Shown here piece by piece: positions 9,737 through 61,206 of a stretch of 64,000 bases of DNA. This stretch comes from Histomonas meleagridis (taxonomy: Eukaryota; Parabasalia; Tritrichomonadida; Dientamoebidae). The notes under the pieces are model-generated. The model did not search any database, was not told the DNA's origin, and saw only the letters and a list, made by a program, of their open reading frames with translations. The position numbers and the translations under genes are program-made. The stretch spans positions 930,001-994,000 of the forward strand of contig WSYJ01000186.1 in the NCBI GenBank assembly GCA_020186115.1, read 5' to 3'. Positions within the stretch are counted from its first letter, which is position 1. Every line of letters starts with the position of its first letter.

Positions 9737-10022
9737 TATATACTAAAGAGTACTTGGCGCTTTTCTAAAAAAGTTTACTGAAGACGGTGTCAACCGACTT
9801 TCCTTCTAATAGATTGTTAAAAAAATTGGTATTATTCATGTTGTACCAATTTGATTTCAATTAATCGCATGTGAAGACATAATGATCTTCAAGTAGGAAG
9901 TTTTTTTGAATTCAAATTAAATCGATAAACATTCCCTTAACGTACAGGTTTTTGACCGTTTAAAATCCCACCACTTCCTAATTGAAATTTGAATTGATAT
10001 ATCTGTTATTAATATTTTCAAC

Positions 10023-12037
10023 ATGAGACCAAAGGAACATTGCGACTGGGAAACATTTCTATCAATAAATCAAGCAATTTTTAGTTTGAATGAAGAAAAT
10101 TTCTCTCGATCTTTAGGTTTAATAATAAGCAAATTTGATGAAAATCATCCTTTATCTTATGATTTAATTATTATTCAAATGATATATTATTCCTTTGTAA
10201 TTAAAAATAATAATGCAGATTTATTTTTGAATATTATAAAAGAAATAAGAGCATTTGAAGAGAGTAATAAAATCAAATCCAATATATTTAATGTATTTTA
10301 TCGGTTTCTTTGTAATGAATATACAAATGAATCATATTATCTTCTTGAAGCTATGATTAAACATAATTTTCTTGACCCAAACATTGTAAAAAACAACCAA
10401 AGTGCTTATTTTGCACATTATATGTCTAAAGAAGAATTAGCAATCTATTTAAGGGAACATGATTTTGTAAATTATGAAGAACTTTCAAAGAATGATTGAG
10501 AACTTCATAAGAAATTAATTAGCGAAGGAAATAATCCAAATGAAATTACAAAAATAATTCGAAATGATGAAATAGAAAAACTTCAAGAAATATCATCACA
10601 AACAAATTTTGATTTTAACCAGAAAATTCGAAAATCAATTTATGAAAGATATTCATTCATTAATCAAAGAAATGTTACATTAATTGATTATGCAGCATTC
10701 TTTGGATCTATTAAATGTTTTAAATATTTACTTATGAATTCTGCTAATACCGAAAATACAGGTGGGAATGAAGAAATTATTCATTTATGTGAACAAAATC
10801 ATTCATCATTTAACAATGCATATGAAGTAGCAATTATGTTTCATCAAAATGATATCTTTAAATATCTTTATGATAACAAATCAAAAGAAACCAATAATTT
10901 AGAAGAATTAGGAGTTAAATGTATTTCATATCATAACTATGAAATATTTTCATTTTTACTTAAAGAAGGAATGAAAATCAATGATGATATTATTATTGAA
11001 GCAGCAACTAATGGAAATATTTTTTTAGTTAAATATTTTCTTAAAGTGCATTCAATTCCACATGATATTTTGGTATTTTCATCTGGATCAGGAAATATTG
11101 AACTTGTTGAATACGTTATAAAACAAGAAGGAATTGATATTAATGCTAAAGATATTTATTTGTTTTATTTAAAATTTATTTCAATAATTTAGAATTTCAA
11201 AATAAAATTTGGAAATTATTTAAAATATTTTATACAGCACTTATTTTTGCATCTTTAAATGGTCATACAGAAATAGTTAAATTACTTCTTGAACAAGAAG
11301 GAATTGATATTAATGCTAAAAATATTTATTTGTTTTATTTAAAATTTATTTCAATAATTTAGAATTTCAAAATAAAATTTGGAAATTATTTAAAATATTT
11401 TATACAGCACTTATTTTTGCATCTTTAAATGGTCATACAGAAATAGTTAAATTACTTCTTGAACTAAAAGGAATTGATGTTAGTACTAAAGGTTTTTATT
11501 TGTTTTATTTGATTTTTATTTTAATAATTTTATTATATTTCAAAATAATATTTAGAAACAATTTAGATTATTTGAAACAGCATTTATGATAGCATCAGAA
11601 AATGGTAAATTAGAAGTAGTTAAATTACTTCTTGAACAAGAAGGAATTGATATTAATGCTAAAAATATTTATTTGTTTTATTTAATATTTAATTTAATAA
11701 TTTTATATTTCAAAATAATATTTGGAAATTATTCAAATTATTTTGGACAGCACTTATGTTAGCATCTTCAAATGGTCATACAGAAATAGTTAAATTACTT
11801 CTTGAACAAGAAGGAATTGATGTTAATGATAAAGATAATATTTATTTTTAGAATTTAATATTTCAAAATAAAATTTGGAAATTATTTAAATTATTTAAAA
11901 CAGCACTTATATTAGCATCTTATAATGGTAATAAAGAAATAGTTAAATTCCTTCTTGAACAAGAAGGAATTGATATTACTGATGAAAATATTAATTCGTT
12001 TCATTTAAAATTTATTTTAATGATTTTATATTTCCAT
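10023..12037 (+). pseudogene. DUF3447-type ankyrin gene with nonsense codon and truncated 3' end
   Basis: Paralogue of the genes at 28492 and 57670. The long 5' block (10023-11153) gives the family's helical N-terminus, an AAFFGSIKCFKYLL core and the HLCEQ motif. It is broken by TGA at 10497-10499, where the paralogue at 57.7 kb has Trp (NDWELHK), and it lacks about six residues of the AIAGG region (near 10745). Then come ankyrin units at about 11234-11333, 11414-11503, 11577-11666, 11747-11839 and 11900-11990. They are separated by five AT-rich inserts of 60-83 bp, the first two nearly identical. A sixth insert stops abruptly near 12037, where a decayed mariner follows. The 3' end is lost. 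Apart from the TGA, the coding units remain open, so decay is recent or the protein is made from the part after it. Confidence 0.8.
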
Positions 12038-19794: not shown

Positions 19795-19876
19795 AATAAA
19801 AAAAATTTGATTTTAAAATTATGTTTTGATGTGTGACACTTTTGGGTTGATGTGTTTTATATAACGTATTTAAATT

Positions 19877-20726
19877 ATGGAAAATGATATCGAAAATGCT
19901 TTTAAGGCTTGTGAAGAAAGAAAAATTGATATTCTACGCGATGTCGTACCTCAAGTAATTGACCCTAATATAAAAATAGATTTGTTCATTTTTTATTTAT
20001 ATGGGATAAAAATGGAATAAAAATTGTAAAGGCAAATTTACTTCATGTAGCAGCTTTTTCGGGATCTGATGATTGCGTAAAATACTTGGTTCAATGTGGT
20101 GCTGATGTTTCAATTTTAGATATTCATTTGAATTTTTTGATATTTCTTAAAAAATTATGAAAGAATTGGTTTAGTGTTTTTAGAACGCCTTTGCACTTTG
20201 CAGTAATTACAGGGAATAATAAAATCGTTAAATTTCTTTTAGAAAAAGGTGCTGATCCAAATTGTAGAGATATTATTTCATTTTTATATTTCATGTAATT
20301 TTAACAAATTTGGCGTTTTTGTAATAATTAATGGACTCCATTACATAGAGCAGCATTATGGAATTATACAAATATCATATCTTTACTAATTGATAAAGGA
20401 GCAAATGTGAATGCAACAGATGAAAATAATCTTTACCTAAATTTGATTGGACACCATTACATGTTGCTGTAAAATGGAATCGAATAGAATCTGTTGAACT
20501 ACTTATTGAACAAAAAGCTGATGTAAGTATTAAGGTTTGATCTATTCTTTGAATGATGTTTGTGTGGCGATTTTTCTGTTTATTTTTTTATATTTGGTGA
20601 TCTTATTTTATTTATAAATTACCACTTCACATAGCACAAATGTTGCATTTACCAAAGATGTCGAACATACTTCGTAAAGCTCAAGGTGAACAAGCAATTA
20701 GAACTGCATTACTAGAATATGAATAA
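19877..20726 (+). CDS. Small ankyrin-repeat gene interrupted by five inserts
   Basis: Starts with ATG at 19877 (MENDIENAFKACEERKID) and ends with TAA at 20724-20726 after RTALLEYE. Between these lie five ankyrin units with intact LLHVAA, TPLHFAV, TPLHRAA, TPLHVAV and LPLHIAQ starts. Before each unit an AT-rich insert shifts frame or brings stops: about 55-65 bp before units 1-3, only about 14-17 bp before unit 4 (near 20432), and about 95 bp before unit 5 (20536-20632). Removing the inserts gives one protein of roughly 190 residues. Inserts lack matched GT and AG ends that restore frame. Ankyrin proteins bind other proteins; the partner is unknown. The exact insert edges cannot be fixed from sequence alone. 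Confidence 0.6.
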
Positions 20727-28491: not shown

Positions 28492-31400
28492 ATGGAGACG
28501 AACCAAGAAGCAAGTGAAAAAAGCCCTAAAGAAGAAATCAAATATCTTCAGGATCTTAGTAATTTGGTTTTTGATTTAGATCAAGGAAATCTTCAAACTA
28601 TTGTTGATTCAACGATGAATTTATTTGATAATAATTTTCCAATTTCTTTTAACATAGTTCTTATCAAAAATATATTTTCGTCATATCTTTCACAACGTAA
28701 AGACGTCAATGTATATTTACAATATCTACAATCCCTAGAGAAAAAAGAAGAAGAAATTCTCAAAGTAAATCCACAAATATTTGAATTATTCAAAAAAGAA
28801 CTTCTTATGTCAATTTCCATAGAGTCAAATTATTTTATGTACAAACTAATTGAAAACAATTTAGTTAGTTCGGAAAATAGCTTTTCAACTAGTGATCGAT
28901 ATTTTGTACATTTATTTACAGAAGCACAAGTTAAACAAATTAAAAAAATGGGGGAAGAAACCAATTTTTCAAGATCATATCATCAACAAAACAATCATAT
29001 CTCCCCTTTATTACTCTTTTATGCTAAAAACAAAGAGGATAATTTTGAACAACATAAGAAGAATATTATCGAAGGGAATACATCAAAATTATCAATTATC
29101 ATACGTAATGATGATGTTGAACAACTCCAAGAGATATCATCTAACAAAGAATTTGATTTTAATCAGGTAATCTCTTCAAATATTTATGAGAAATTTTCGA
29201 AATGTTCTAAAGGTAATGTCACATTAATAAATTATTCAGCATTTTATGGATCAATTAAATGTTTTAAATATTTATTATTAAATAATGCAGACTTAAATCA
29301 TACAGGTAAATATGCTGTAGCAGGTGGAAACATAGAAATAATTCATTTATGTGAACAAAATGGTGCAAAATTTAATTGTTCATATAAAGCAGCAATTAAA
29401 TTTCATCGAAATAATATTTTTTATTATCTTTATGAAAATAATTTATTTAAATATGAACCATCAAATTTAAGATTTCGAAGAAGAAAATATTTTTGTTTTC
29501 ATTCTCTACCAAATGATAAGTTTATTAATCCAACTGCAGATCAACAAAATGAAACCGAAGAAGAAAATAAAAATAAATTATTAACTTCAATTGCTACCAA
29601 ATCTATTCAATATAATAATTTCGAAATATTTTCATTCATTGAAAAAGAAGGACTTGAAATTAATGATGAAATTATAGAAGAAGCTTTTATGAGTGGTAAC
29701 ATATTTTTTGTGAAATATCTTTTTGATGAGAAAAAAATTTCAAGTGAAGCATTTGCTTATTCAGTTTCTTCACATAACATTGAACTTGTTAAATATGTTT
29801 TAGATCATAATGAAATAAATGTTAATATTTGCGACGTATAGTTTTGTATTTTTAAAGTTTATTGATAATATTCAAAAATGTTTTTTGAAATTTATATTAT
29901 ACTCCATTATTTTTTGCCTGTTATTCAAATGATTATGATATAGTAAAATTACTTCTCGACCAAAAAGGAATTAATGTTAATCATAAATCTATTTATTTGT
30001 TTTATTTGATATTTGTTTTAATTATTTCATTTTTTAAATTAGCATTTTATAATTCTATAAATTATTTCAAAATGGACTTATGATTACATCTTTGAATGGT
30101 CATACAGAAATAGTTAAATTACTTCTTGAACAAGAAGGAATTGAAATTAATGCTAAAGATATTTATTTGTTTTATTTAAATTTTATTTTAATAATTTTCT
30201 ATTTCAAAATAAAATTTGGAAATTATTTAAAATATTTTATACAGCACTTATTTTTGCATCTTTAAATGGTCATACAGAAATAGTTAAATTACTTCTTGAA
30301 CAAAGAGGAATTGAAATTAATGCTAAAGATAATATTTATTTCAATAATTTTATATTTCAAAATAATATTTGGAAATTATTTAAATTATTTCAAACAGCAC
30401 TTATAATTGCATCTGAAAAAGGTCACACAGAAATAGTGAAATTACTACTTGAACAAGAAGGAATTAATATTTCCCAGCAAAATAATAGAGGTAAGTGTGC
30501 ATTAACATTATCATTAGAAAATAATTATATAGAAATAGTTAAACTACTTCTAAAATATAAGGATATAGATATAAATATAGAAAGTGTTATAGATTTTTAT
30601 TTATTGTTTATTTCTCTAATTTTCTATTTTATTCTAAAATTTGGAATTAATAAAATATTTTTTCAACGCCATTATTATACGCATGTTCGAATAGTAATGT
30701 TGAAGTTGTAAAACTTCTTATTAATTATAAAGGAATTGATATTAATAAATGTAACATATATTTAAAATATAATTTTTTAGAAATTATTTTAATTTTTCGA
30801 AACTCCATTAATGTATGCAACAATGAAAGGTAATTTAGAAATTGTTAAATTGCTTCTTGAACAAAAAGATATTAATATTAATGCAAAAACTATTTAATGA
30901 TTAATTATAAAATTTATTATAATTATTTGATATATATAGGGTATATTTAGGATTTTATTAAATTATTTGATACAGCTTTAACTATTGCAGTACGAAATAA
31001 TTATATTGAAATAGTTAAATTACTTCTAGAAAGAAAAGATATTAAAATTAATGTTGTAGATATTAATTATATTAATTTAATATTCAGATAAAATTTTTCT
31101 AATTTCAATATAATATTTGAAATATATTTAAATTATTTGGTACACCATTAATGTATGCAACACTTGAAGGTTTAATAGAAATTGCAAAATTACTTATAGA
31201 ACAAAAAAATATCGATTTTAATGTTAGGAACATAATTTATTATAATTTTTTTTCGTATCAAAGTAACATTTGGAATTTATTTAATATATTTGAGACTGTA
31301 CTTCATAAAATTGTATGTAATTTTAATGGAAGACCTTATGAAATGCAAGATTGTAATGATATTCAATTTATATTTTTGATGTTTATTTATTTTATTTCTT

Positions 31401-32329
31401 CGTTATACTACTAAAATCGATCAAGAAAAATTCTACCAAAAATATAACAATTCAAGTTTAGAGATTCAAAATTATATTTATTTCATACATTTAAAGTTTA
31501 TTAAATTTTTTTGGAAATATTTTTTTATTTAATGACGAACAAAATGAGATCAATCTAATTCATAAAAATCAATTTGAAATTTTTAAGTTAATTCTTGATA
31601 AAAAAGGAGTTAATGTAAATATAACATCTGTTTATTTCTTTTACTTTATAATTATTTCAAAATATTTTAATCTTAAAATAAAATTTGGAATTAAATTAAA
31701 ATATTTTACACCCCATTAATGACCGCTTGCACCCACGGAAGAACAGATATTGTTAAATTGTTACTTGAACAGAAAGAAATTGATGTTAACTTCTGTGGCG
31801 TTTATTATGTATATTTTATATTTATTTATATAAAATGGTAATTAAAAATATCATTTGGAATATAATTAAATGTTTTGGTAATGCTTTTATGATAGCTTGT
31901 TTTAACAATCATTTGGAAACTGCTAAGTTATTACTTGAATTGCATAAAGAAATTGATATCAACCAAAAAAATAATGGTTGTTATAATTAATTGAAATTTT
32001 TTTGCATAATTCGGAATTTTGTTATAATATTTATGAATTCTTTAATGGGTGCCGCTCAAAATGGTCATTATGATGTCGTGGAATTTCTTGTTCAACAGAA
32101 AGGAATCAAATTAAATGAAGTAAATAATTGGGGAAGAACAGCAATTGAACTTGCATCTGAATTTTCAAAAAAAGATGTAAAGGAATTGCTTAAGAAACAA
32201 AAAGATATTATCTTTGATGACAAAATGCCTGAAACTGAAACAAAGCAAACTTTCGGCAGATATATACCTGGTACAATTTATCGAGTAAATGCAAATCCAA
32301 TTCAACCCAATAAATTCGGAATAAGTTAA
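28492..32329 (+). CDS. Large DUF3447-type ankyrin gene with about 13 inserts
   Basis: The long 5' block (28492 to about 29838, ~449 codons) is the trichomonad DUF3447 ankyrin type: helical N-terminus, NDDVEQLQEISS, YSAFYGSIKCFKYLL, AVAGGNIEIIHLCEQ and FHRNNIFYYLY. Ankyrin units follow at about 29910-29990, 30071-30153, 30241-30333, 30394-30592 (two repeats joined), 30666-30749, 30802-30894, 30972-31062, 31142-31232, two degenerate ones near 31290 and 31530, then 31710-31800 and 31877-31980. The last block is 32036-32329, ending in a unique tail (NPIQPNKFGIS, TAA). Every unit is open; the stops and frame changes lie in the AT-rich inserts. The complete, conserved C-terminal block argues for one functional gene of about 950 residues once the inserts are removed. 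Confidence 0.65.
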
Positions 32330-57669: not shown

Positions 57670-60600
57670 TTAAGTATGTTTGTGAAGTAAGTCTAGTATT
57701 TCTTTGAAATTTTTATTCGTTTCTGCTATTTTAAGTGCTGTCCAAAATATTTTAAATAATTTCCAAATATTATTTTGAGATTCTAAATTATTAAAATAAA
57801 TTTTAAATAAAACTTATAAATATTTTTGGCATTAATATCAATTCCTTCTTGTTCAAGAAGTAATTGAGCTGTTTCTTTGTGAAAGAATGATAAAGCTGTT
57901 AGAAGAGCTGTATTAAACAAATAAAATAATTACCAAATATAACTTTGAAATGTCAAATTATACAAACAAATTTCAAAAAAATAATAAAAATATCTTGTAC
58001 ATTAATATCAATTCCTTTTTGTTTAAGAAGTAATTTAACTATTTCGTTATATCCTCTGTTAGATGCCCAAATAAGTGCTGTTTTAAATAATTTAAATAAT
58101 TTCCAAATATTATTTTGAAACAGAAAATTATTAAAATAAAATATAAATCAATCAAATAAATATCTTTAGCATTAACATCAATTCTTTCTTGTTCAAGAAG
58201 TAACTTAACTATTTCTGTGTGACCCTCCATAGTTGCTTTCATAAGTGCTGTCCAAAATAATTTAAATAATTTCCAAATATTATTTTGAAATACAAAATTA
58301 TTAAAATAAATTTGAAATAAAATAAATAAATACCTTTTGCGTTAATATCAGTTTTTTCATATTCAATAAGTAGTTTGGCTATTTCTGTGTTACCTCTATT
58401 TGACATCATTATAAGTGCCGTATTAAATAATAGTAATAATTTTCAAATGTTTTTTTGGAATAAAAAACTATGAGAATAAGTATCAAATAAAATTATTAAA
58501 TATTTCTTTCATTAACATTAATTTCTTCTTTTTCAAGAAGTAACTTAACTATTTCCGCGTTTTCTCTGTTAATAGCAATGTCAAACGCGGAGTCAAATAA
58601 ATTAATTAAATTTTAAATATAATTTTAAAATATAAAAATATTAAAATAGATTTTAAATCATTTAAATAAATATCTTTAGCATTAATATCAATTCCTTCTT
58701 GTTCAAGAAGTAATTTAACTATTTCTGAGTGTTTATTTATAACTGCAATCATAAGTGCTGTATTAAATAAATTAAATAATTTCTAAATATCACTAAAAAT
58801 TATCATATAAATAAAACAAATTTTAAACAAAATAAAACAACATTTTTGAGGTTAACATTTATTCCTTCATGTTCAAGAAGTAATTTAACTATTTCTATAT
58901 TACCTTGTCTAGAAGCTAAAAAAAGTGCTGTATTAAATAATTTTTATGTTTTCCAAATATTATTCCAAAATATCAAACAAACAAAACAAATAATATTTAT
59001 ATAAAATAAAAATTTTTAATATTAACATCAATATCTTTTTGATTTAAAAGTAAATTTACAATTTCTATATCATCATTTTTAACTGCATAAAAAAGTGCTG
59101 TATTATTAAGTTTAATCAAATTCCAAATATTTTATTAAAATTTCAAATAATTAAATCAATTTTTAAGAATTAATAATTATCATCTTTAATATTGATTTTA
59201 ATGTTATTTTGTTGAAGTAAAAAGTTAACAATTTCATAATTTTCATTTGATGATGCAACAATAAGTGGTGTTTGAAATATTAAATTTAAATTCCATTTTA
59301 AAAATTGAATCATCAAATAATTAATTCAAATTCTTTTTAATTTGAAAAAAAATCTTTCGCATTTATATTAGCTTTTTTTTCAAGAAGGTATTGAATAATA
59401 TCAATGCTGTCATTAAAAGTTGCTAATATAATTGGAATGTCTTTTAATTTAAATAAATGCCTATTAATATCTTAATAAACATTTAAAAAGAATGAAATTC
59501 TAAATTAAAATTTTAAATATTTTTCATCTTGACATTAATTTTCATTTGTTCTACTAAATATTTAACTATTTCTAGATTTCCTGAATACATAGATTCAAAT
59601 ATTATATCTTTTGGCGGATTTTTATTTTTCTCAATATTATAATGCAAAAATAAATATAAATTTCCAATTCTTACTGTCTTAAATAAAAGTTCTTCAGAAA
59701 ATTTCATTCCTTTTTCGAATAAAAATGATAAAATTTCATAATTAAAACTTGAAATACATTTTAAACCATATGAATTAAGATTTGATACATCAAACATTTC
59801 TTTTTTATTTTCATAAAGATAATAAAAGATATCATTTCGATGAAACATAATTGCTGTTTCAAATCCATTTTCAAATGATAAATGTTTTTGTTCACATAAA
59901 CGAATAATTCCTTCATTTCCACCTGCAATTGCATATCTACTTGCATTATTTGCATTTGCATCATTTATTAGTAAATATTTAAAACATTTAGTTGAACCAA
60001 AAAATGCTGCATAATCAATTAATGAAACATTATTATGATTAATGTATGAACATCTTTCATAAATTGATTTTGGAATTGTTTGATCAAAATCAAAATTTGT
60101 TTGAGATGATATTTCTTGAAGTTTTTCTATTTCATCATTTCGAATAATTTTTGCAATTTCATTCGGATTATTTCCTTCTTTAATTAATTGCTTATGTAAT
60201 TCCCAATCATTATTTGAAAGTTCTTCAATATTTTTTCTAAATAACATTATATCATTAAATTTAGAATATTCTTTTTCTTTAAAATAATGTGCAAAATAAC
60301 ATGTTTTAAACTTTTTAACATATTTTGGATTTATCATTTTCTCTTCAATCATTTTGTTAATAAGGTAATATGATGTTTGATATTTAGAACTAAGTCTTAT
60401 TGCTGATAATATTTCTTTAATTAAATCATTATTATTAAATAAAGTTTCCTTTTTTGCTTGAATTGCTTTTAAAAAAGTTAGAATCAAATCACCCTTATAA
60501 TTTCGAGAAATAAGAGATGAGCAAACTGACATTTGAATTATAACATGAAGAAATGTTTTTGAATATTCATCATCAAAATTATTTAAAATATTTTCTACCG

Positions 60601-60688
60601 ATGATTCTATGTTTCCTTCGTTCAAACCATAGATAATGTGATCAGATAATTCAAGGTATTTTAAGTAATTTTTATTATTTTTTTCCAT
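57670..60688 (-). CDS. Large DUF3447-type ankyrin gene with about 11 inserts
   Basis: The long 5' block (60688 to about 59519, ~390 codons) gives the full DUF3447 pattern: LSDHIIYGLNEGNIES, RNDEIEKLQEISSQTNFDFD, YAAFFGSTKCFKYLLIN, YAIAGGNEGIIRLCEQ and FHRNDIFYYLYENK. Eleven ankyrin units follow downstream on the minus strand, beginning near 59446, 59275, 59103, 58934, 58760, 58593, 58421, 58245, 58081, 57915 and 57743. Each has a TAL-type start and IVKLLLEQ-type second helix. AT-rich inserts separate all of them. The last unit ends EILDLLHKHT and TAA at 57670-57672. No unit contains a stop. Removal of the inserts would yield about 730 residues. Likely a protein-binding scaffold; trichomonads have hundreds of such genes of unknown role. 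Confidence 0.65.
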
Positions 60689-60796
60689 TAAAAATTATAA
60701 TTATAAACTTGACCAATGAAGCTTCATTTTGTATAGTTTATAGACATTATCGACTTTTTATATAAAATTCATAAAAAAATTTAAACTAATTTACCA

Positions 60797-61206
60797 ATTT
60801 ATTATAATGAATTTCGTGAAAGAATTCACTAAAGTGCATTTTCAATTTATTATAATGAATTTAGTGAAAAGAATTCACAAAGTGCATTTTCAATTTATTA
60901 TAATGAATTTAGTGAAAAGAATTCACAAAGTGCATTTTCAATTTATTATAATGAATTTAGTGAAAGAATTCACCAAAGTGCATTTTCAATTTATTATAAT
61001 GAATTTAGTGAAAGAATTCACAAAGTGCATTTTCAATTTATTATAATGAATTTAGTGAAAAGAATTCACCAAAGTGCATTTTCAATTTATTATAATGAAT
61101 TTAGTGAAAGAATTCATCAAAGTGCATTTTCAATTTATTATAATGAATTTCGTGAAAGAATTCACCAAAGTGCATTTTCAATTTATTATAATGAATTTAG
61201 TGAAAA
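60797..61206. repeat. Minisatellite, 48-bp unit, 8.6 copies
   Basis: Eight full units and one partial, each AATTTATTATAATGAATT, then (T)AGTGAAAGAATTCAC and CAAAGTGCATTTTC, 47-49 bases long. Units differ by single A or C insertions and a few substitutions. Each unit contains the near-palindrome GTGAA(A)GAATTCAC. It lies upstream of the ankyrin gene (start 60688) and just after the 3' end of the beta-helix gene. Open frames within it are by-products of the repeat. Confidence 0.95.

What the first reader, a model, noticed from the sequence alone, without database searches (positions are those of the whole stretch)
57670..60688. Every ankyrin unit of a DUF3447 gene is preceded by a similar AT-rich insert at the same residue position
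Eleven ankyrin units are intact while the inserts between them carry stops and frame changes. The insert always lies between the end of one repeat (N-A-K-D) and the T-(A/P)-L of the next. Inserts share a 5' part like ATATTTATTTG and a 3' part like TTTGGAAATTATTTAAA. Coding conservation on both sides plus free drift inside is what introns look like. Known trichomonad introns are few and carry GTATGT-type 5' ends and ACTAAC..ACAG 3' ends, which these lack. This could be a new intron class, a recent intron expansion, or another form of removed DNA.
Basis: partly seen in the sequence, partly recalled or inferred. Interest (0 to 1): 0.88.

Follow-up and report, generated by a model that had tools for sequence, protein, structure and literature searches.

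The report
Ankyrin genes split codon by codon
In a poultry parasite's ankyrin genes, the short loop between protein repeats is written one codon at a time with a 17-letter spacer before each codon; the spacers must be removed for a protein to be made, and they do not look like any intron class tested here.

Summary
In detail: 11 ankyrin units (57670-60688, minus strand), each preceded by an AT-rich insert. The reading needs one change. Each insert is not one intron. From the D codon to T-A-L all 11 gaps are exactly 80 nt and read [17 nt] codon [17] codon [17] codon [17] codon. The four codons give the normal ankyrin loop D-x-x-G-x-T. In 135 distinct 80-nt gaps the third codon is Gly in 112, and none of the 540 codons is a stop (about 34 expected). 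A second family has gaps of 20m nt (40-340): 0 stops in 253 codons (24.5 expected). Two other ankyrin genes carry single or several 17-nt spacers at differing places in the same loop. Genome-wide, 711 exact 80-nt gaps fit one strict flank. Exon units are intact in 215 of 217. The best 150 WD40 and Ras matches show nothing like it. Best reading: ultrashort phase-0 intervening sequences removed one by one, probably at RNA level. No RNA data were available.

The parts
57670..60688 (-). DUF3447/ankyrin gene, ATG to stop
59519..60688 (-). first exon, ends ..KINVKMKN (D-position codon)
   Evidence: Pfam hits
59439..59518 (-). gap 1, 80 nt: 17-nt spacers at 59502-59518, 59482-59498, 59462-59478, 59442-59458; codons R C G D
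59352..59438 (-). ankyrin unit exon IPIILATFNDSIDIIQYLLEKKANINAKD
59272..59351 (-). gap 2, 80 nt: 4 spacers, codons R D G Q
59182..59271 (-). ankyrin unit exon
59102..59181 (-). gap 3, 80 nt: 4 spacers, codons K E G N
59012..59101 (-). ankyrin unit exon
58932..59011 (-). gap 4, 80 nt: 4 spacers, codons I D G N
58842..58931 (-). ankyrin unit exon
58762..58841 (-). gap 5, 80 nt: 4 spacers, codons K D R N
58672..58761 (-). ankyrin unit exon
58592..58671 (-). gap 6, 80 nt: 4 spacers, codons K Y K D
58502..58591 (-). ankyrin unit exon
58422..58501 (-). gap 7, 80 nt: 4 spacers, codons D F E N
58332..58421 (-). ankyrin unit exon
58252..58331 (-). gap 8, 80 nt: 4 spacers, codons Q C G W
58162..58251 (-). 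ankyrin unit exon
58082..58161 (-). gap 9, 80 nt: 4 spacers, codons I S G K
57992..58081 (-). ankyrin unit exon
57912..57991 (-). gap 10, 80 nt: 4 spacers, codons E D G N
57822..57911 (-). ankyrin unit exon
57742..57821 (-). gap 11, 80 nt: 4 spacers, codons K R G W
57670..57741 (-). last exon TALKIAETNKNFKEILDLLHKHT*
11154..11996 (+). second array of the same family: three 80-nt gaps (loop codons KRGY, KRGY, NYGW), one 83, one 63
28492..32329 (+). third gene of the family: first exon, divergent units, gaps of 80, 63, 46, 12 and 65 nt and one unparsed 308-nt stretch, last repeat without spacer and C-terminal tail to stop
19874..20723 (+). another ankyrin gene (gankyrin-like by eye): gaps 63, 63, 29 fit 17-nt spacers plus 4 codons; the last gap is 81 and the first (56) holds extra residues with a lone candidate spacer about 19982-19998

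Best explanation
The gene is functional. The codons of each ankyrin loop (D-x-x-G-x-T) are separated by intervening sequences of 17 nt (perhaps rarely 16 or 18), AT-rich, typically ATTT...TTT, lying between whole codons. Each spacer is removed on its own, so that exons of a single codon remain and the ordinary 33-34-residue ankyrin repeat results. Shown here from DNA: the 17-nt module, translation of the codons between modules (by absence of stops), intactness of the exons, presence in several hundred loops and in other ankyrin genes. Inferred: that removal happens at RNA level as a form of splicing, stepwise, by a machinery that does not use the GT...TCTAAC...AG signals of this organism's ordinary introns. 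Spread is by duplication of exon-plus-spacer units (170 nt) and of spacer-plus-codon units (20 nt).
For: (1) Codons between spacers are translated: at gap offsets 17/37/57/77 stops are 0/0/0/0 against 6.1/8.5/1.0/18.8 expected from column composition, in 135 distinct 80-nt gaps; no other register with 3 or more expected is at 0. In 33 gaps filtered to under 82.5% identity: 0 against 6.4 expected. Family 2: 0 stops in 253 triplets against 24.5. (2) Slot 3 is Gly in 112 of 135 (the G of D-x-x-G-x-T), slots 1, 2 and 4 variable, slots 1 and 4 mostly polar; 8 of 11 Gly in the window gene. (3) Length: 180 of 187 gaps between units equal whole 17-nt spacers plus 2-5 codons (lengths). Genome-wide with one strict flank, 851 of 879 gaps of known length equal 3-5 spacers plus 1-6 codons. 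In a parse with spacer length free from 13 to 22, 616 of 699 spacers are 17. (4) Spacer ends are conserved (mean pairwise difference 0.13-0.30), the middle is freer (0.31-0.56). (5) Two other ankyrin genes, anchored by hand: 9 of 13 loops fit 12+17k exactly (2 of these 9 are spacer-free), with single spacers at different codon borders, such as D-L-S-G|R-T-P-L. (6) 215 of 217 full-length exon units intact. (7) No spacer-free copy of the strict junction was found (0 matches for 3-33 nt), so intact exons are not kept up by copying from spacer-free genes of that spelling.
Against: No RNA or peptide was seen. Units of one family share descent, so counts are not independent events. The expected stop numbers assume independent columns; several other registers also lie below expectation (offset 6: 3 against 8.2; 46: 2 against 6.9; 62: 4 against 8.1; 66: 4 against 11.1), though none is at 0. 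The end profiles of the free-length parse came from the 17-nt slots themselves, so it leans to 17. Not every gap fits: 7 of 187 (65, 75, 78, 82 three times, 85); 28 of 879 in the strict set (64, 72, 75, 79, 81, 82, 84; 13 of them 81); 4 of 13 in the two other ankyrin genes (56, 64, 81, 82); 5 of 17 in L057/L059/L061 (44, 72, 79, 81, 81). dN/dS between units is only 0.61-0.89, lifted by hypervariable surface residues. Spacers 1, 2 and 4 seldom hold a stop in the upstream frame (13, 9 and 14 of 145), though spacer 3 does in 131 of 145. How a splicing machine could handle 3-nt exons and 17-nt introns is unknown. Family-2 loops would hold 2-17 residues, which is unusual.
Confidence: 0.78

Rival explanations
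1. Each insert is one ordinary-sized intron (about 68-77 nt) with divergent ends; the periodic triplets are chance.
For: Explains intact exons and untranslatable inserts equally well.
Against: Cannot explain 0 stops in 540 and 253 triplets in the spacer-plus-codon register, the Gly in slot 3, codon-sized length steps inside the insert, or loops with a single 17-nt spacer.
Confidence: 0.06
2. Pseudogene arrays or satellite DNA: the repeats are copied by recombination and no protein is made.
For: Very high copy number and array structure; the array at 11154-11996 has an in-frame TGA at 10497-10499 upstream and lacks a clear end.
Against: 215 of 217 exon units intact; first exons: 8 of 117 listed matches with a stop; stop avoidance in loop codons; no spacer-free source copy of the strict junction; intact final exons and tails in the window genes at 57670 and 32329.
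Confidence: 0.06
3. Ribosomes hop over each spacer during translation (programmed bypass).
For: The spacers sit between whole codons, as a hop requires.
Against: Re-pairing needs the take-off triplet at the landing site; the last triplet of the spacer equals the preceding codon in only 11 of 580. The window gene would need 44 hops.
Confidence: 0.05
4. Removal at DNA level, as with ciliate internal eliminated sequences.
For: Short, AT-rich, precisely placed elements.
Against: No spacer-free version of the strict junction in the assembly (0 against 711 with an 80-nt gap); no second nucleus is known in this group (recalled).
Confidence: 0.05

Closest known systems
Trichomonas vaginalis type B introns (about 25 nt, shortest 23; GT...TCTAAC...AG; section 5 part 1 of PMC12316389 read)
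   Same: Ultrashort intervening sequences in a parabasalid; Histomonas has 23-25-nt look-alikes.
   Different: Spacers here are 17 nt, lack GT-AG and CTAAC (0 of 230 each), occur four or more in a row, with single-codon exons.
15-nt introns of the ciliate Stentor coeruleus
   Same: Intron lengths in this range can be spliced (15 nt is stated in a passage of PMC6679479; PMC9505925 seen only as listing and abstract start).
   Different: That those are GT-AG is recalled. No tandem runs with 3-nt exons are known to me.
Euglenid nonconventional introns
   Same: No conserved spliceosomal borders; removal mechanism unknown (abstract starts of PMC6221363 and PMC4770533).
   Different: Those form a stable RNA structure joining the ends; here none was found, length is near fixed at 17 and ends are typically ATTT...TTT.
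Mitochondrial byp elements (Magnusiomyces), ribosomal bypass (recalled)
   Same: Many short untranslated insertions in coding sequence.
   Different: Take-off and landing triplets do not match here (11 of 580).

Membership tests
Spliceosomal U2-type intron | GT start and AG end | tested here: not met
   0 of 230 distinct 17-mers GT-AG; 15 begin GT, 0 end AG
Spliceosomal U2-type intron | parabasalid branch site CTAAC | tested here: not met
   0 of 230 contain CTAAC; ordinary introns of this genome do
Spliceosomal U2-type intron | absence from mature RNA | not testable with these tools
   no RNA data held
AT-AC (U12-type) intron | AT start, AC end | tested here: not met
   0 of 230 end AC
Euglenid nonconventional intron | stable RNA structure bringing the ends together | tested here: not met
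   RNAalifold gives no structure on 33 divergent gaps; mean single-sequence z 0.25 over 20 gaps. Whole 80-nt gaps with 12-nt flanks were folded, not single spacers
Translational bypass element | matching take-off and landing triplets | tested here: not met
   11 of 580
Ankyrin repeat gene | 33-34-residue repeat with D-x-x-G-x-T-P/A-L loop | tested here: met
   first exon hits PF12796, PF11929, PF13637, PF00023; 30-residue units plus 4 loop codons

The most novel reading that the evidence does not exclude
Histomonas has a second RNA-removal pathway, independent of GT-AG splicing, that cuts out fixed 17-nt ATTT...TTT elements one after another and can leave exons of one codon. It acts on thousands of elements (711 gaps of four for one strict flank alone), in the copies examined only in ankyrin loops, and keeps a large, hypervariable ankyrin repertoire readable.
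Probability: 0.45. Interest if true: 0.97.

Novelty: new variant of a known kind. Interest (0 to 1): 0.93.

Why it matters
If the spacers are spliced, they are shorter and more densely packed than usual introns, lack every intron signal tested, and leave single-codon exons, which bears on how small introns and exons can be and on how splice sites are recognised. The published annotation of this genome reports 573 introns and at most one per gene (PMC8529796, passages), and 2 of 4 public Histomonas models of this family that I read end at about the first spacer (P0034, and less clearly P0015). So several hundred ankyrin loops, possibly a large protein repertoire of a poultry parasite, appear to be unannotated. 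Existing RNA reads could test it directly.

Tried and rejected
Rejected: GT-AG or T. vaginalis-type introns. GTATGT..CTAACACACAG has 0 matches genome-wide; a looser form gives 12 against 21 for the reversed control, but 10 of the 12 are 23-25 nt and look like type B introns, and the two fetched sit in coding sequence (in L063 the upstream exon is only a few codons). Rejected: the ACAG before T-A-L as a 3' splice site (units with T-P-L lack AG). An early guess of a mere 17-nt quantum and then a mere 20-nt repeat was replaced by 17 + 3. A codon-model scan for skips of 8-30 nt did not single out 17 (120 events at 17; 112-135 at other lengths of the form 3n+2), because one skip of such a length bridges an 80-nt gap; it is not evidence either way. 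Outside ankyrin units of the window and 20 loci it listed 24 skips of 17 nt, none ending in TTT, so no spacer was found in other genes there. RNA folding: nothing. Spliced relatives were sought in the protein collection and not found. Most of the 22 hits read end at or run into the first spacer; they include proteins of another organism (P0002: 60-61% identity to this genome over long matches, up to 65% over short pieces). P0033 has one loop that may lack spacers; P0014, P0017 and P0038 do not reach a comparable junction. Paper searches for Histomonas introns and ankyrins, trichomonad introns, 17-nt introns and 3-nt exons gave no earlier report in the listings.

Full report
What was checked. 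The window is contig C120, 930001-994000, of a 43.28-Mb genome. The contig length 3,384,422 equals the largest contig of the virulent Histomonas meleagridis strain in Table 1 of PMC8529796 (passages read), so the organism is taken to be H. meleagridis. The gene at 57670-60688 (-) has a first exon of 390 codons with DUF3447 and ankyrin hits, 10 full ankyrin units, and a last exon ending at 57670. Between the D-position codon of each unit and the T-position codon of the next lie 11 gaps, all exactly 80 nt.

The unit of the insert is 17 nt. I anchored ankyrin units by a profile in the window and 20 loci and took 187 gaps under 150 nt between units scoring over 15. 145 are 80 nt; others are 63 (14), 83 (11), 60 (3), 82 (3) and single cases from 12 to 85. 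Reading the 80-nt gap as four times 17 + 3 leaves four triplets. In 135 distinct gaps these triplets never form a stop (expected 6.1, 8.5, 1.0, 18.8), while every other register with 3 or more expected stops has some; a few of those lie below expectation too, because columns are correlated. Slot 3 is Gly in 112 of 135, and slot 1 is mostly K, N, D, E; together they give D-x-x-G-x-T-A-L, the usual ankyrin loop. In the window gene the loops read RCGD, RDGQ, KEGN, IDGN, KDRN, KYKD, DFEN, QCGW, ISGK, EDGN, KRGW: 0 stops in 44 triplets, 8 of 11 with Gly in slot 3. In that small set some other registers are also free of stops (0, 1, 10, 14, 18), so the weight rests on the larger sets.

Length variants obey the same rule. 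180 of the 187 gaps equal whole 17-nt spacers plus 2-5 codons; 65, 75, 78, 82 (three) and 85 do not. With spacer length free from 13 to 22 nt, 616 of 699 parsed spacers are 17, but the end profiles were taken from the 17-nt slots, so this parse leans to 17. The 63-nt gaps of one common type lack exactly the first spacer but keep its codon (D-N-N-G-K-T and the like). The 83-nt gaps that parse have one extra codon between two spacers, or before the first. For one strictly spelled flank the genome holds 711 gaps of 80 nt, 133 of 49-79 and 68 of 81-111, and none of 3-33. Of the 879 whose length is known, 851 equal 3-5 spacers plus 1-6 codons and 28 do not, 13 of these being 81 nt (33 of the 133 were not listed). 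Some misfits may be spacers of 16 or 18 nt or homopolymer errors; this was not tested.

A second family makes it plainer. In six loci (L051-L056) near-identical exons (TALHIAVRNNNIEIVKLLLDKEGIDVNAKN) are separated by 20m nt, m from 2 to 17, with two exceptions (122 and 381): a first spacer ATTCATTTGAATAATTT and then repeats of codon plus ATATGTTTTAATAATTT. Of 36 gaps taken by regex, 34 are multiples of 20; their 253 triplets contain 0 stops, 24.5 expected.

Other ankyrin genes. In the window at 19874-20723 (+) and in L058 (C118) two ankyrin genes of different sequence have loops of 12, 29, 56, 63, 64, 81 and 82 nt. Of 13 loops, anchored by hand, 9 fit 12+17k exactly, 2 of these with no spacer; 56, 64, 81 and 82 do not. 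Some spacers stand alone at different codon borders, for example after D-L-S-G and after D-Y-N-G. This speaks against a property of one tandem array only, although shared descent of ankyrin repeats cannot be ruled out. In three more divergent loci (L057, L059, L061) 12 of 17 gaps fit (11 exactly 12+17k, one 83); 44, 72, 79, 81 and 81 do not.

The genes look functional. A frame-blind DNA profile search found 217 full-length exon units; 215 are intact. Consensus bases at one hypervariable codon spell TAA, yet no unit of that search carries a stop there. dN/dS between units is 0.61-0.89 and is raised by hypervariable surface positions. A search with a relative's first exon (P0002) scored 101 candidates and listed 117 matches, 8 of them with a stop. 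By contrast spacer 3 holds a stop in the upstream frame in 131 of 145, spacers 1, 2 and 4 in 13, 9 and 14.

Where spacers occur. Of the 150 best PF00023 matches in this genome, 138 lie in open frames under 100 aa by my count of the table. For WD40 the best 150 all lie in frames of at least 222 aa, and for Ras the best 150 in frames of at least 168 aa. Both lists are capped. So the phenomenon is confined, as far as tested, to ankyrin genes. Proteins of another organism in the protein collection (P0001-P0008, P0010 and others) also end at D-I or run into the spacer. P0011 can be back-translated as K[17]Y[17]G[17]K-T-A-L, an inference from the protein.

What the spacers are. 244 distinct 17-mers (230 from fixed slots or parses plus 14 set by hand) begin AT in 146, AA in 52, GT in 18, and end TTT in 188. 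Ends are the conserved part. None of the 230 is GT-AG or AT-AC, and none has CTAAC. The same genome has 23-25-nt sequences GTATGT...TCTAAC...CAG (10 of 12 matches of a loose pattern; its reversed control gives 21, so the count alone proves nothing). Of two fetched, each 25 nt, one in L062 joins open frames on both sides in phase 2, and one in L063 precedes a MOB1-like frame (name by eye) after a very short exon. So ordinary signals exist and the spacers do not use them. No RNA structure was found. Ribosomal bypass is unlikely because the take-off codon is variable and matches the end of the spacer in 11 of 580.

Conclusion. What is shown: 17-nt modules between translated single codons in ankyrin loops, in hundreds of loops. 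What is inferred: removal, most likely from RNA, one spacer at a time, by an unknown or strongly modified splicing route. It works like an intron; it fails the tested membership features of each known intron class considered.

Noticed in passing
exon units of family 1, codons 5, 8, 9, 11 (window and L031-L050): Ankyrin surface positions are hypervariable (pairwise difference up to 0.68) while neighbours are near fixed, as in diversified binding repertoires.
   Followed up: partly
L051-L056: Family 2: 20-nt units (17-nt spacer + codon) repeated 2-17 times between near-identical exons, mostly GGA and GAA codons.
   Followed up: yes
L062:979-1003, L063:696-720: 25-nt GT-AG introns with TCTAAC in this genome, phase 2 in L062 and near the start of a MOB1-like gene in L063.
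   Followed up: yes
60795-61205: 48-bp tandem repeat, 8.6 copies, 96% matches, just upstream of the gene.
   Followed up: no
9993-11996: Sister array whose first exon has an in-frame TGA at 10497-10499 and no clear end; probably decaying.
   Followed up: no
L033 (C81): Two near-identical spacer arrays in opposite orientation; one has a unit with a frameshift. Assembly artefact or inverted duplication.
   Followed up: no
P0034, P0015 (NCBI models on the 3,384,422-bp contig): Public models named 'caskin': P0034 ends at the first spacer, P0015 probably too, so annotation appears to miss the ankyrin array.
   Followed up: partly
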